A stretch of 38,104 bases of DNA from Clostridia bacterium (GTDB lineage: Bacteria > Bacillota > Clostridia > Oscillospirales > Acutalibacteraceae), in NCBI GenBank assembly GCA_017430145.1, contig JAFRNP010000075.1, forward strand, positions 1 through 38,104, read 5' to 3'. Positions 673-16,365 of the stretch are shown one piece after another. The position numbers and the translations under genes were made by a program. Under the pieces are notes generated by a model. That model saw only the letters and a list, made by a program, of their open reading frames with translations, was not told where the DNA came from and searched no databases. Within the stretch, counting starts at the first letter, position 1; the number at the start of each line of letters is the position of its first letter.

Positions 673-989
673 AAAAGTTAAAAAAGTTAAAAAAGTTAAA
701 AAAGTTACAAAGTTACAAATAGGGGCGGGACACCCGCACCCGATTATATAATGCCGGCCAAAGGCCCGACACTTTTCAGCGCAGCCGAAATACATCACTT
801 CCGGCTGAGCCGGATACATCACTCGCCGTCAGGCGAACATCACGCCGCACAGCTGTACATCACTCGCCATCAGGCGTTACGGATCTTCAAATTGGATGGC
901 ACAAGGCATGAGCCTTTTACGATCAACGCCGCGCCAAGGCGGCGTTCCGAATTTCTAACTTTTATATCTTTTATAACTTTCTAACTTTC
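673..989. repeat. Composite intergenic repeat, copy 1
   Basis: The nadK-tlyA gap is filled by a structured repeat. The left end is a run of AAAAAGTT-like units (673-714), then ACAAAT and a GC hairpin (GCGGG/CCCGC, near 725-737). The right end, read inward on the minus strand, is a similar A-rich GTT run, then GAAATTCGGAA, an 8-bp hairpin AACGCCGC/GCGGCGTT, then TTGATCGTA. Between the ends lies an array of short palindromes separated by TACATCAC. The same two end types occur in opposite orientation at 14646-14964. The tlyA stop codon (981-983) lies within the right end. Read outward, each end is a hairpin followed by a T-rich tract, so it may stop transcripts leaving the element. No coding sequence is seen inside. 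Confidence 0.7.
771..895. repeat. Tandem short palindromes spaced by TACATCAC
   Basis: Four consecutive units of about 20-24 bp, each a short palindrome followed by (T/A)ACATCAC(T): TCCGGCTGAGCCGGA, CGCCGTCAGGCG, GCCGCACAGCTG and CGCCATCAGGCG. The spacer is nearly constant while the palindrome changes with its pairing kept, which points to selection on hairpin structure or to a hairpin-based duplication process. It lies in the core of composite repeat copy 1. Confidence 0.65.
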
Positions 990-13675: not shown

Positions 13676-13710
13676 AACCGCGGTTCGGATACGGGCCGCG
13701 GTTTTGTTTT
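13676..13710 (+). terminator. Rho-independent terminator of the hydrolase/oxidoreductase operon
   Basis: AACCGCGG (13676-13683) pairs with CCGCGGTT (13696-13703) over a 12-nt loop and is followed by TTGTTTT. It ends the transcript started at 8278-8306. Confidence 0.85.
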
Positions 13711-13814
13711 CGGTTTCCGTCACAAAATGCACGCAAAAACCGCAACATTTTCCGCCTCGGGCATACCATACTACCGGAGTACAAAGCTCACATATTCATT
13801 CAGGAGGTTTTATT

Positions 13815-14510
13815 ATGCCCGAAACGACACTCCCCACCCCCGAAGCCGCCCGGCCGAAGATCACGGACGCGGTATGCATCAACACCGCGCGGGTCTACGA
13901 TTCCTGCGCAGACAGAAGCTGCGTCAGCGGATTGCCCGTCACCTTCACGGATACCGCCCTTGCGGTCCTTGCGAACGCGGTCAGCGTGCGGCCCCGCAGC
14001 GCTGAGATCCTGAACGTTTTTTCAGAGATCGAACGGGTCCCGTTCAACACCGGCTACTACTCGGTGGACGCGACGTATTACTTCCGCGTGCTGCTTGACG
14101 TTTACACCCAGCAGCCCGCCTCGCCCGAGACGGTGGAAGGCCTGTGCGTTTACTCAAAAAAGAGCATCCTTTACGGCGCGGACGGCAGCGTGAAGGTGTT
14201 CTCTTCCGAATTTACGCCGGAGGTCGACACGCAGGCGGCGCCCGTCACCACCAATCCCCGCGCCGTGATCCAGGTGGCCTCCCCCATTCTGCTGGCGGCG
14301 CAGTACAATCCGGACGCCGACGCGTCGGACGTCGTTACGCCGCTGATCCCGGAGAGCGTAGGCAGGCGCTTCAACGGGGAGTTCCGGCGCCAGACAGACG
14401 AAAACGCCCCGCTCGTCAGCGTTACGATCGGGCTGTTCTCGATCGTGCGCATGGAGCGGGACGTCCAGCTTCTGATCCCTGCCTACGATTTCTGCCGCCC
14501 GACCAAGTAG
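13815..14510 (+). CDS. Conserved clostridial protein of unknown function, ended early by an in-frame TAG
   Basis: 231 residues from ATG 13815 (AGGAGG lies 7 nt upstream). No signal peptide or membrane segment. It starts with a cysteine-bearing stretch (KITDAVCINTARVYDSCADR ... SC), followed by beta-rich sequence (VPFNTGYYSVDATYYFRVLL, SKKSILYGADGSVKVFSSEF, LFSIVRMERDVQLLIPAYDF then CRPTK). I recall a clostridial family with this pattern whose C-terminus continues Pro-Glu-Lys-Glu-Cys... Here the codon after Lys is TAG, where that family has Glu (GAG), and the same frame stays open for 45 more family-like residues. It may be a pseudogene, a sequencing error or a readthrough product. Function unknown. 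Confidence 0.75.
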   Translation: MPETTLPTPEAARPKITDAVCINTARVYDSCADRSCVSGLPVTFTDTALAVLANAVSVRPRSAEILNVFSEIERVPFNTGYYSVDATYYFRVLLDVYTQQPASPETVEGLCVYSKKSILYGADGSVKVFSSEFTPEVDTQAAPVTTNPRAVIQVASPILLAAQYNPDADASDVVTPLIPESVGRRFNGEFRRQTDENAPLVSVTIGLFSIVRMERDVQLLIPAYDFCRPTK

Positions 14511-14648
14511 TGCGCGGGCGACCCCGAGGATCCCTGCGACGCCTTCAGCCGCATGGACTTCCCGATGAACGAGTTCTTCCCGCCGGAACAGGCAGACGCG
14601 GCAGAGACGTTCGACCCGACCGACGGCTGTACGGGATGCAGGGAATAA
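14511..14648 (+). other. In-frame C-terminal continuation after the TAG
   Basis: Directly after TAG (14508-14510) the frame continues for 45 codons to TAA (14646-14648): CAGDPEDPCDAFSRMDF, then PMNEFFPPE, then an acidic stretch ending in DGCTGCRE. The Cys-rich, FPxNEFFPP-type sequence looks like the natural end of the protein, and GC-rich codon use matches the upstream part. So the reading frame was recently intact or is still used by readthrough. Confidence 0.7.
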
Positions 14649-14718
14649 AAGTAGTAAAGTAAAAAAGTATAAAAGTATGAAATTCGGAAGGGCTTTGCCC
14701 TTGATTGTAGAAACGGGG

Positions 14719-14890
14719 GGTTCTGCAAAACCGAACGTAAACGGCTCTGAAATGACCGGGAGCTGATCTCTCTGCAAAACCGGACGCAGAGGGTCTGGAA
14801 AAACACATACGTGAAAGATCTGAAAAGGTCAGACGCAAAAAAACTCTGCGCATCCGGACGCGGTGGATCTGCGATTCCGGGCGCAGAGAG
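14719..14890. repeat. Degenerate tandem repeat of ~24 bp (TCTGcaaaaCCGgACG)
   Basis: Seven imperfect units begin with (G/C)NTCTG: TTCTGCAAAACCGAACG, CTCTGAAATGACCGGGAG, CTCTGCAAAACCGGACG, GTCTGGAAAAACACATACG, ATCTGAAAAGGTCAGACG, CTCTGCGCATCCGGACG and ATCTGCGATTCCGGGCG. Several are followed by CAGAG, which can pair with CTCTG. Spacing varies from about 21 to 27 bp. Confidence 0.55.
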
Positions 14891-14893
14891 TTT
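14844..14893. terminator. Probable bidirectional terminator hairpin
   Basis: CTCTGCGC (14844-14851) pairs with GCGCAGAG (14881-14888). The stem is flanked by an A run on the left and AGTTTTT on the right, so both strands end in T-rich tracts. It can serve the plus-strand gene ending at 14510/14648 and the minus-strand nahK. The 29-nt loop can fold further. Confidence 0.6.
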
Positions 14894-14961
14894 TTCAGAA
14901 TTCAGGTGCGGGCAGAGCCCGCCCGCATTTGTTACTTTGTATCTTTCTTACTTTTTTACTT

Positions 14962-16095
14962 TTATTTTTCTCCCAGCGTCTTCCCCGTGATCTCCCGATA
15001 CGTCTCCGCCGTGATCGCGTCCAGCAGCGCCATCTTCTTTTCAATGTCTTTTACAAGGGCGAACTGGGCGCGGGCACGCACCAGGTTATGCGTGGGGTAC
15101 GCCGTGCGGAAATAGACGTCGCCGTCCAGATAATCGGTCAGAAACCGCATGCCGCATTCAAAGGTCATCAGCTTTGCCGAGAAAGGCAGCAGGCGCACCT
15201 CCTCCCGCCACAGGCTCTCGCCCGCCGCTTCGAGGAAACCGCGCAGATAGGCGGTGTAAAGGTCAACGCTTAACGATACCTCCGCCGGATTTTCCGCATC
15301 CTCCGCCGCCGTATTGGCGCCGGACCGGATCGCGTCGCCGAAATCGTAGAGGCTGAGCCCCGGCATGACCGTATCCAGGTCCACCACGCACACGGGCGCA
15401 TCGGTATCCTTGTCAAACAGGATGTTGTTGAGCTTGGTATCGTTATGGGTCACGCGCAGCGGCAGAAGCCCCGCGGCCGCCTTGCCCGTCAGGATATAGG
15501 TATCGTCCGCGCGGGCGCGGGCAAAAGCGATCTCTTCGGTGCAGGTATCAAGCCTGCCGGAGCGGTTCTCACCGATCGCCGCCGTCAGGTTGCGGAAACG
15601 GGCCGCCGTATTGTGGAAATCGGGGATCGTCTCGCCGAGCTTTTCCGCCGGGAAATCCGCCAGCAGGTTCATAAAGGCGCCGAAGGCGCTGCCGGTTTTG
15701 TAAAACAGTGACGTCGACGGCGTACAGCTGTACGAGAAGACGTTATCTATATAATTGTATATACGCCAGACGCGCCCTTTTTCATCCGTATGGTAGATCC
15801 CGCCCGCTCTGCAGGGGATGCAGCGCAGCGAGCGCATGCCGCTCTCCGGCGCAGAAGCCAGTTTTTCGGCAAGAAAGGCGGTCACTGCCGCCACGTTTTC
15901 CATCAGCAGCGTCGGATTTTTAAAAACGGAGGTATTGATCTGCTGCAGCAGATACGCGCTGCCGCCCGTACCGCTTTTCATTATAAGTTTAAACGTGTTG
16001 TTGATGTGTCCTTCCTTGATGGCTTCGCTGCCCGCATACGTGCCCTCCAGCACGAACGCGTCGGCGATCGATTTGAGTTCTCTGTCCGTAAACAT
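14962..16095 (-). CDS. nahK: N-acetylhexosamine 1-kinase (NahK/LnpB-like, APH fold)
   Basis: Predicted anomeric kinase that phosphorylates GlcNAc/GalNAc at C1, used with lacto-N-biose phosphorylase in the catabolism of mucin core and milk-oligosaccharide disaccharides. At 377 residues it aligns along its length with the bifidobacterial enzyme as I recall it: EGHINNTFKLI and YLLQQINTSVFKNP near the N-terminus, the catalytic loop PLRVTHNDTKLNNILFD, VVDLDTVMPGLSLYDFGDAI then RSGANTAAED, and the C-terminal LMTFECGMRFLTDYLDGDVY then PTHNLVRARAQ. ATG at 16095 has AAAGGAG 8 nt before it; longer in-frame extensions have none. It stands alone, without a phosphorylase or transporter nearby. Confidence 0.85.
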   Translation of the reverse strand: MFTDRELKSIADAFVLEGTYAGSEAIKEGHINNTFKLIMKSGTGGSAYLLQQINTSVFKNPTLLMENVAAVTAFLAEKLASAPESGMRSLRCIPCRAGGIYHTDEKGRVWRIYNYIDNVFSYSCTPSTSLFYKTGSAFGAFMNLLADFPAEKLGETIPDFHNTAARFRNLTAAIGENRSGRLDTCTEEIAFARARADDTYILTGKAAAGLLPLRVTHNDTKLNNILFDKDTDAPVCVVDLDTVMPGLSLYDFGDAIRSGANTAAEDAENPAEVSLSVDLYTAYLRGFLEAAGESLWREEVRLLPFSAKLMTFECGMRFLTDYLDGDVYFRTAYPTHNLVRARAQFALVKDIEKKMALLDAITAETYREITGKTLGEK

Positions 16096-16124
16096 GGCAG
16101 ACTCTCCTTTCCTCAGCTTGTTAC

Positions 16125-16154
16125 AGTATAGCAGAAAGCCGGAGCCGCCGTCAA
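16125..16154 (-). promoter_or_regulatory. Sigma-A promoter of nahK
   Basis: On the minus strand TTGACG (16149-16154), an 18-bp spacer and TATACT (16125-16130), with the extended -10 TGC. It leaves a leader of about 20 nt before the ribosome binding site. Confidence 0.75.
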
Positions 16155-16231
16155 CATAAAAACGGCCGTTTAAAAATAATTCATATTTCTGCAACATGTT
16201 CGGAGAAAGCTGTGCAACCGTCCGAAGAGAG

Positions 16232-16254
16232 GCACTATATATTGTGAATAGTGC
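16232..16254. promoter_or_regulatory. Inverted repeat between nahK and the secreted protein gene
   Basis: GCACTAT and ATAGTGC, perfect 7-bp arms 9 nt apart, in the divergent promoter region about 37 bp before the -35 of the plus-strand gene. It may be an operator; no regulator gene is adjacent. Confidence 0.35.
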
Positions 16255-16290
16255 ACAAAGAAAACCCGTGAATATTTGCCATTTTTTTAG

Positions 16291-16319
16291 TTGACGGATG
16301 AAAAAAAATGCGATAAAAT
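16291..16319 (+). promoter_or_regulatory. Strong sigma-A promoter of the large secreted protein gene
   Basis: TTGACG (16291-16296), a 17-bp spacer and TAAAAT (16314-16319). The nonamer ATGCGATAA occurs at 16308-16316 and again at 16322-16330, across the -10 and the probable start site, and may be a regulator site. Confidence 0.8.
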
Positions 16320-16365
16320 ATATGCGATAACGAATGATTATCAAAAACTGGTAAGGAGTATGTGT

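What the first reader, a model, noticed from the sequence alone, without database searches (positions are those of the whole stretch)
673..989. Two composite intergenic repeats with the same two distinct ends, inserted in opposite orientation (here and at 14646-14964)
Both are about 315 bp. One end type is an A-rich AAAGTT/AAAGTA run + ACAAAT + a GC hairpin. The other is the same kind of run + GAAATTCGGAA + a hairpin of unrelated sequence + TTGATYGTA. The conserved words flank hairpins that differ in sequence but keep pairing. Copy 1 has order ACAAAT...GAAATTCGGAA, copy 2 the reverse. Both abut or include stop codons of neighbouring genes (tlyA; both neighbours of copy 2). Their cores are different arrays of short palindromic or degenerate tandem units. 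This suggests a mobile, non-coding cassette with variable cargo and outward terminators, which I do not recognise as a named family.
Basis: partly seen in the sequence, partly recalled or inferred. Interest (0 to 1): 0.78.

Follow-up and report, generated by a model that had tools for sequence, protein, structure and literature searches.

The report
Mobile palindromic repeats with swappable arms
The two odd stretches are real copies of a small non-coding DNA element that has spread to scores of gene ends in this gut bacterium; relatives carry versions with the same layout but different short repeated words and hairpins, and at the same spots in two sister species the insert differs, which points to a fast-moving repeat family that we could not match to a named one.

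Summary
Both 317-bp stretches end in the same kind of unit: tandem A-rich 8-9-nt words, AAATNNGG, a GC hairpin, then GATNNTA. The genome has at least 150 such ends. In 88 fetched loci I found 82 inverted pairs, 81 of them spanning 128-615 bp. Among 148 ends, 37 neighbours face inward within 620 bp (1.1 expected); none face outward.

Copies are alike over their full length in both orientations, and the likeness mostly stops at their edges. They sit between genes, often at a stop codon. In relatives the inner module CGGAA-hairpin-TTGATNATA stays, while stem and array words change. In one genome elements carry different words, yet arms match within elements (p=0.0002). At 7 of 7 alignable loci a sister species has a different insert; 3 keep the outermost inverted repeats. 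A goat-omasum relative has 14 copies about 95% identical.

Best reading: a non-autonomous, REPIN/MITE-like mobile palindrome with exchangeable layers. The ends are not terminators, though the core of copy 2 holds a terminator-like palindrome. No mover was identified. It fails the REPIN GTAG/CGTC tag test and has no Rfam match.

The parts
673..748 (+). Copy 1, end A read inward: array of AAAAAAGTT words (673-716), AAATAG (717-722), hairpin GGGCGGGACACCCGCACCC (723-741), GATTATA (742-748)
   Evidence: sequence; member of alignment A1; profile match at 683-748, 43.9 bits, seen in locus L188 = the same contig from base 1
749..917 (.). Copy 1, variable core with tandem (A)TACATCAC-hairpin units (790-876)
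   Evidence: direct repeats D3-D5; a similar linker-hairpin design appears in relatives
918..988 (-). Copy 1, end B read inward: array, AAATTCGGAA (945-954), hairpin CGCCGC..GCGGCG, TTGATCGTA; tlyA stop (TAG) lies in the array
   Evidence: profile match, E 1.8e-14
14647..14709 (+). Copy 2, end B: array of AAAGTANN words, AAATTCGGAA (14680-14689), hairpin GGGCTTTGCCC, TTGATTGTA
   Evidence: profile match, E 1.8e-13
14710..14901 (.). Copy 2, variable core with degenerate 28-nt repeats CTCTGCAAAACCGGACGCAGAGGGTCTG and a terminator-like palindrome with A and T runs (14837-14895)
   Evidence: repeats D1, I6, I7; terminator-like sites 14868-14887 (+) and 14862-14849 (-)
14902..14963 (-). Copy 2, end A: array of AAAGTANN words, ACAAAT, hairpin GGGCGGGCTCTGCCCGC; stop codon of the minus-strand APH-family gene (14962-16344) lies at its edge
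   Evidence: profile match, E 8.5e-15; Pfam APH

Best explanation
The two stretches are copies of a non-autonomous, non-coding mobile element of the REPIN/MITE general kind. It is a large palindrome made of concentric layers: outermost inverted repeats (seen in some relatives, e.g. AAATTGG..TTTGTCG), arrays of a short degenerate word, a hairpin with fixed flanks (CGGAA-stem-TTGATNATA), and a variable centre.

Shown: the element is dispersed, multiplies as a paired unit, and is recent in one relative. The hairpin stem changes with compensation while its flanks stay fixed. Words and interiors differ between elements of one genome and between sister species, and the two arms stay matched where a genome holds several words.

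Inferred: (1) an enzyme supplied in trans recognises the folded hairpin plus CGG/GATNATA, so that structure matters more than stem sequence. (2) New palindromic units insert into, or replace, the centre of older ones at permissive gene ends, so that the old unit's two halves remain as matched outer layers. This would explain paired words, nested symmetry and exchange of the interior with the edges kept. (3) Insertions survive mostly at gene 3' ends because the arms bring stop codons in short spacers. The enzyme is not identified.
For: Copies and pairs. Full-length homology in both orientations that mostly ends at the edges: 474 ordered pairs, 43 of 81 elements; 72-88% identity among the 45 best pairs. 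Recent spread: 14 full-span G062 (RGIG2737 MAG) copies with pairwise identity 90-99%, median 95%; near-identical G020 copies by eye. Insertion between close genes: the tlyA-nadK junction carries the element in G000, while most of the 20 relatives with a readable junction have about 10-75 nt there, read by eye. Stop codons: 54 of 85 facing gene 3' ends lie -25 to +10 nt from the element edge, median 3 nt, against a median of 40 nt for 65 facing gene starts. Hairpins: at least 5 of 6 stem pairs in 111 of 157 parsed ends (of 211) against 44 on average (most 59) when arms are re-dealt; other stems with the same flanks in other genomes. Word matching between arms: G060, 23 elements, 40.0 within against 29.4 between, p=0.0002; G063 inserts, 5 of 7 loci cut out automatically, 51.6 against 20.2, exact p=0.0083. 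Exchange at orthologous loci: 7 of 7 collinear loci differ, 3 keep the outer inverted repeats.
Against: No transposase or recombinase is tied to the ends. The one RAYT-like gene of G000 has no G000-type end in its 3.35-kb locus. No clean target duplication was seen in 12 full elements, all of G064, or by eye. In G000 itself arm words do not match more within than between elements (p=0.81, 48 of 81 elements parsed), nor do inner arms (p=0.999). There is likewise no excess in G062 (p=0.72), G064 (p=0.11) or the G065 inserts (p=0.14). In G060 the own partner is the single best for only 3 of 23 elements, and 8 of 23 lack a matching right arm within 400 nt. Unit order along the arms beats block shuffles in only 14 of 38 elements. 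The exchanged inserts keep some likeness: 36-67% identity against 31-51% for shuffles in 5 loci, the compared stretches including shared edges. Centre insertion was not caught as a before/after pair: none of the 7 loci is empty.
Confidence: 0.55

Rival explanations
1. Ordinary bidirectional intrinsic terminators or mRNA 3'-end stabilisers that arose at gene ends, with no mobility.
For: Elements abut stop codons. 16 of 75 lie between convergent genes, 21% against 39 of 312 (12.5%) of adjacent gene pairs in the same loci. Terminator-like sites exceed shuffles (2 and 3 against 0.6), and copy 2's core has an A-run/hairpin/T-run palindrome.
Against: Copies align over their whole length, core included, in both orientations. 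53 of 75 lie between co-directional genes (71%; 237 of 312 gene pairs, 76%, in the same loci). No T run follows the end hairpins. The tlyA-nadK junction holds this element in this genome only, among 21 read.
Confidence: 0.08
2. Locally born palindromes: slippage and fold-back synthesis at AT-rich gene ends make inverted word arrays in place, and likeness between loci is due to gene conversion rather than transposition.
For: Word matches between arms, exchange of interiors at fixed loci, no target duplication seen.
Against: 14 copies with median identity 95% in G062, and homology that mostly stops at the element edges, are easier to explain by movement of whole units.
Confidence: 0.17
3. REPINs proper, moved by the genome's RAYT (Y1) transposase.
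For: Inverted doublets, hairpins with compensatory stems, intergenic location, one RAYT-like Y1 gene in G000. REPINs share these traits (PMC3116915: abstract and first part of its section 10 read).
Against: No GTAG or CGTC tag at the hairpin foot. Element-bearing G018, G020, G010 and G002 have no Y1 match (completeness 92, 58, 58 and 85%). No match to the G000-type end lies in the 30 fetched Y1 loci (that model is tuned to the G000 word). Separate GTAG-tagged inverted hairpins exist in G063.
Confidence: 0.1
4. The word arrays are written by a telomerase-like reverse transcriptase, e.g. the UG26 enzyme found here, as 7-9-nt tandem repeats on DNA ends.
For: UG26 RT in G000 (E 1e-172); proteins that look the same in G062, G063 and G064 by eye. 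A UG-family RT (DRT10) makes 9-nt tandem-repeat DNA (PMC12632851, passages read). Word lengths here are 7, 8 and 9.
Against: G059 and G061, where I read 3 and 1 module copies, have no RVT_1 match. The one RT of G060 is retron-like. G011 has two RVT_1 matches and no module match. DRT10 is a defence system, not known to write into the genome.
Confidence: 0.04
5. A structured cis-regulatory RNA (cloverleaf of outer stem, two hairpins and inner stem).
For: The symmetric anatomy could fold so; hairpin stems covary.
Against: Outer arrays and inner arms show no excess pairing within elements in G000. RNAalifold found no consensus pair on the mixed end alignment. Rfam: no relevant match.
Confidence: 0.04

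Closest known systems
REPINs / BIMEs (REP doublets moved by RAYTs), PMC3116915
   Same: Short hairpin motifs in inverted pairs as the unit of spread, intergenic, compensatory stems, unpaired singles as well.
   Different: No GTAG/CGTC tag; arrays of degenerate 7-9-nt words outside the hairpins; exchangeable words; 128-615 bp in G000; no linked RAYT found.
Prokaryotic MITEs (review PMC10969869; MITE with a minisatellite in Porphyromonas gingivalis PMC4596501; only the start of each abstract seen)
   Same: Small, non-coding, inverted-repeat ends, many copies, tandem repeats inside.
   Different: No parent transposon with the same ends found, no clear target duplication, inverted arms are word arrays that differ between copies of one genome.
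Intergenic heptamer direct repeats such as TAACTGA (PMC4679880, passages read) and cyanobacterial STRRs (recalled)
   Same: Tandem 7-mers between genes, scattered distribution.
   Different: There they are direct repeats of one word with one inverted case reported; here words come in inverted pairs flanking a hairpin module.
IS200/IS605-type ends (recalled; HUH survey PMC6006769, start of abstract seen)
   Same: Subterminal hairpins, no target duplication seen.
   Different: No tnpA linked to the ends; long symmetric palindrome rather than asymmetric ends.

Membership tests
REPIN/BIME | Two hairpin motifs in inverted orientation as one unit | tested here: met
   37 inward pairs among 148 listed ends, 1.1 expected; 82 pairs in fetched loci
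REPIN/BIME | GTAG or CGTC tag at the foot of the hairpin | tested here: not met
   Hairpin feet are AAATNNGG and GATNNTA in the 62 aligned G000 ends and CGG/GATNATA in the module copies of relatives (found by that pattern)
REPIN/BIME | Cognate RAYT in the genome, usually beside the repeats | tested here: inconclusive
   One Y1 match in G000, no G000-type end in its locus; none in G018, G020, G010, G002; all are incomplete assemblies
MITE | Inverted-repeat ends, no coding capacity | tested here: met
   Inverted ends; of 77 elements compared with called genes 2 overlapped one (own gene caller)
MITE | Target-site duplication | tested here: inconclusive
   None evident in 12 full G064 elements; G000 edges are blurred by arrays and were not tested
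MITE | Autonomous transposon with the same ends | tested here: inconclusive
   In the 88 fetched loci only one pair spans more than 615 bp (L207, 3610 bp), and its right end has a weak nearby partner; the whole genome was not scanned for long pairs
Intrinsic terminator (element ends) | GC hairpin followed by a T run | tested here: not met
   Tails of the end hairpins are ATTTGTTACTTTG; weak sites in the relaxed scan. The core of copy 2 has a T-run hairpin
Any Rfam family | Match over the element | tested here: not met
   0 at gathering score in the window; in four element loci at E up to 0.1 two hits, a T-box away from the element and a below-threshold microRNA model

The most novel reading that the evidence does not exclude
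A class of bacterial mobile palindromes whose two arms are written together. Whatever installs the element puts the same short word into both ends, chosen from a changing vocabulary (AAAGTANN, AAAGTTG, AGTGCTG, AATTAAA, AATGCAG, GTCGGAA, AGGTTTG and others), and whole interiors are exchanged at fixed gene-end sites under the same outermost inverted repeats. The word would be installed as part of the reaction (fold-back copying or templated repeat addition) rather than inherited as fixed transposon ends.
Probability: 0.25. Interest if true: 0.85.

Novelty: new variant of a known kind. Interest (0 to 1): 0.66.

Why it matters
Short intergenic repeats in gut Clostridia are easily passed over as noise. 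Here they form a paired, spreading family that can separate neighbouring genes, and its words and interiors turn over faster than the genes beside it: 7 of 7 alignable loci differ between two sister species whose flanks at those loci are 91-99% identical. If arms and interior are installed together, this gives a testable route to two questions: how bacterial palindromic repeats stay palindromic, and where scattered 7-mer tandem repeats in bacterial genomes come from.

Tried and rejected
RNA cloverleaf: dropped, because neither outer arrays nor inner arms pair more within than between elements. The model built from the end alignment has no base pairs because RNAalifold gave none, so R1 is a sequence model tuned to the G000 words.

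Phage carriage: the pattern AAATTCGGAANGCCGC gives 52 viral-contig stretches; read by eye none is an element end. Phage and plasmid record collections were not searched.

RAYT and reverse transcriptase as movers: presence does not follow element presence. Only three RTs were classed with PADLOC models.

Target duplication: not seen; G000 was not tested for it.

Unit-order collinearity of arms: weak (14 of 38).

A first stringent pattern in genome contigs found nothing; the looser one found 29 stretches, five of them in unrelated groups and taken as chance.

Full report
What is there. The window is contig C51 of genome G000, a 3.03-Mb, 180-contig, 86.6% complete assembly. Both reported stretches are 317 bp. 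Read inward, each of the four ends is an array of 8-9-nt A-rich words, then AAATNNGG, a GC hairpin and GATNNTA (copy 2's ACAAAT end closes with the variant GAATTCT). The ACAAAT-GGGCGGG end and the GAAATTCGGAA end are variants of this one unit.

How many. AAATTCGGAA occurs 51 times in the genome against 6 for its reversed control; with TTGAT after 8-26 nt it is 42 against 0; the word-free module CGGAAN{8,20}TTGATNATA is 73 against 0. I fetched 88 stretches around the listed ones (bases) and found 221 matches at E up to 0.05, or 211 merged ends with nhmmer, of which 164 form 82 inward pairs: 81 span 128-615 bp and one 3610 bp. 47 ends stay single. Among 148 ends copied from the list, 37 neighbours within 620 bp face inward, 4 are tandem, none face outward; 1.1 are expected at uniform density.

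It spreads as a unit. Blast between elements with 200-nt flanks gives 474 ordered pairs that cover at least 80% of an element, 247 in plus and 227 in minus orientation, involving 43 of 81 elements. The alignments overhang the element by a median of 0 and in 95% of cases by about 8 nt or less; the largest overhangs are 43 and 171 nt. The 45 best pairs are 72-88% identical, core included. In relative G062 (RGIG2737) 14 copies with full span have pairwise identity 90-99%, median 95%. Tandem dimers sharing one terminal hairpin occur there (L429, L439).

Where it sits. With a codon-usage gene caller of my own, 75 elements with clear neighbours gave 53 between co-directional, 16 between convergent and 6 between divergent genes; 2 more overlap a called gene and 4 lie at contig edges. 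All adjacent gene pairs in the same loci are 237, 39 and 36, so co-directional places are not favoured and convergent ones are mildly so. 54 of 85 facing gene 3' ends lie -25 to +10 nt from the element edge (median 3), against 5 of 65 facing starts (median 40 nt). In the window, copy 1 separates tlyA from the next gene, which I read as nadK (name by recall; TlyA-type S4 and FtsJ domains). Of 20 relatives with a readable junction most have about 10-75 nt there and no such element; G003 and G004 have other repeats there (gaps read by eye). The tails after the end hairpins lack T runs, but the relaxed scan finds 2 and 3 terminator-like sites against 0.6 expected, and the core of copy 2 holds an A-run/hairpin/T-run palindrome at 14837-14895. 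Termination by that core is possible; by the ends it is not supported.

Relatives. In the genus search (26 genomes) the module pattern counts 73 in G000, 64 in G024, 37 in G004, 21 in G020, 13 in G025 and 11 in G018. 25 of 26 genomes have some match, but those listed for G012-G014, G001, G021 and G016 are mostly without a hairpin, and the list was cut part-way through G024. R1 finds G020 27, G018 8, G010 7, G003 5, and 15 of 26 none. Flanks CGGAA and TTGATNATA stay (they define the search); the stem changes: AAAACGC/GCGTTTT in G064 (= G024), AAAACAC/GTGTTTT in G062 (= G004), AAGGC, AAGCC and AAGTCC in G060, AAGCCC in G065 (= G020), AACGCCGC, AAGGGC and AAGCGC in G000. In G000, 111 of 157 parsed ends (of 211) have at least 5 of 6 stem pairs against 44 on average when arms are re-dealt; nearly all of the rest are the bulged GGGCGGG stem. 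Array words also change: AAAGTTG (G020, G018), AAAGATA (G010), CAATTAA (G024), and in G060 alone AGTGCTG, AATTAAA, AATGCAG, AATTCGG/AATGCGT and AATTAAG. The related named records are rumen and gut Clostridia MAGs.

Arms match. In G060, where words differ between elements, the left arm matches its own downstream region, inverted, better than other elements' regions (40.0 against 29.4, direct orientation 20.6, 5000 permutations, p=0.0002, 23 elements; hits with low-repetition left arms or short downstream sequence were dropped). Because words are shared by several elements, the own partner is the single best for only 3 of 23, and 8 of 23 have no good right arm within 400 nt. In single-word genomes there is no excess (G062 p=0.72, G064 p=0.11; G000 arrays p=0.81 on 48 of 81 elements). 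Unit order is only weakly preserved (14 of 38).

Exchange between sister species. G065 (CAMVNL01, = G020) and G063 (RUG13427, = G018) are the two species. Flanks of 10 G065 elements were searched in G063: 7 are collinear on both sides with 91-99% identity, 3 are unresolved (L304, L309, L311). In all 7 the insert in G063 is different: arrays of GTCGGAA, AGGTTTG or GGAATTC in three, inverted GTAGC-tagged hairpins in four. In L314, L318 and L324 the outermost inverted repeats are the same in both species while the interior differs. None of the 7 is empty. For the five loci that could be cut out automatically, insert identity between species is 36-67% against 31-51% for shuffles, the compared stretches including shared edges. 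The five G063 inserts are each self-matched palindromes (51.6 within, 20.2 between, exact p=0.0083); the five G065 ones, which mostly share a word, show no such excess (60.4 against 54.4, p=0.14). One further locus (upstream of a gene I read as mutS) has the same cassette in both (L297, L320).

Movers. PF01797 (Y1) has one match in G000, RAYT-like by eye, without G000-type ends in its locus; G018, G020, G010 and G002 have none. RVT_1 has three in G000, one of class UG26 (E 1e-172), but G059 and G061, where I read 3 and 1 module copies, have no RVT_1 match, and the RT of G060 is retron-like. Neither is supported as the mover.

Reading. A non-autonomous mobile palindrome family of the REPIN/MITE kind is well supported. 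That its layers arise by insertion into or replacement of palindrome centres is inference from nested symmetry, matched words and exchange under kept edges. It is not a REPIN by the tag test and matches no Rfam family. Papers: REPIN paper (abstract and first part of section 10), TAACTGA paper (passages), DRT10 preprint (passages), others from search listings only.

Noticed in passing
window 13704-14648: A frame of 268 codons is interrupted by TAG at 14508-14510 and runs on for 45 residues (4 Cys) of protein-like sequence to TAA at 14646-14648, right at the edge of copy 2. Possible read-through, recoding or recent nonsense change; unexplained.
   Followed up: no
L164 2354, L191 2637, L199 3824, L202 2755, L236 718 (positions on the strand read): A conserved cargo inside some cores, GTTAAGAAAATGATC..GATCATTTTTAGC-AGACCGACCGGGC..GCCCGGCGGGGCAACC, with a hairpin that seems to covary, five distinct copies.
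   Followed up: partly
window 780-880; L148, L300, L320, L254: Another repeat design: constant linker (A)TACATCAC / GTGATAT followed by hairpins of unrelated sequence, in tandem.
   Followed up: no
L480 465-2021 (G000 C17); L474, L476, L482 in relatives: A UG26 reverse transcriptase (PADLOC, E 1e-172 for the G000 copy, the only one of these classed) that looks shared by several relatives.
   Followed up: partly
L332 (G000 C57 5290-5640): A single RAYT-like Y1 transposase with GTAGGGGCGGGC..GCCCGC hairpins nearby, i.e. perhaps a separate REP family whose stem resembles the GGGCGGG end hairpin.
   Followed up: partly
L235 829-1076: T-box leader-like RNA, 83.9 bits, just below the Rfam gathering score of 93.
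   Followed up: no
G062 contigs C2, C19, C26, C27, C37, C38, C47, C56, C68, C69: A module copy starts within 100 bp of the start of each of these contigs, so near-identical copies may break the assembly; copy numbers are then lower bounds.
   Followed up: no
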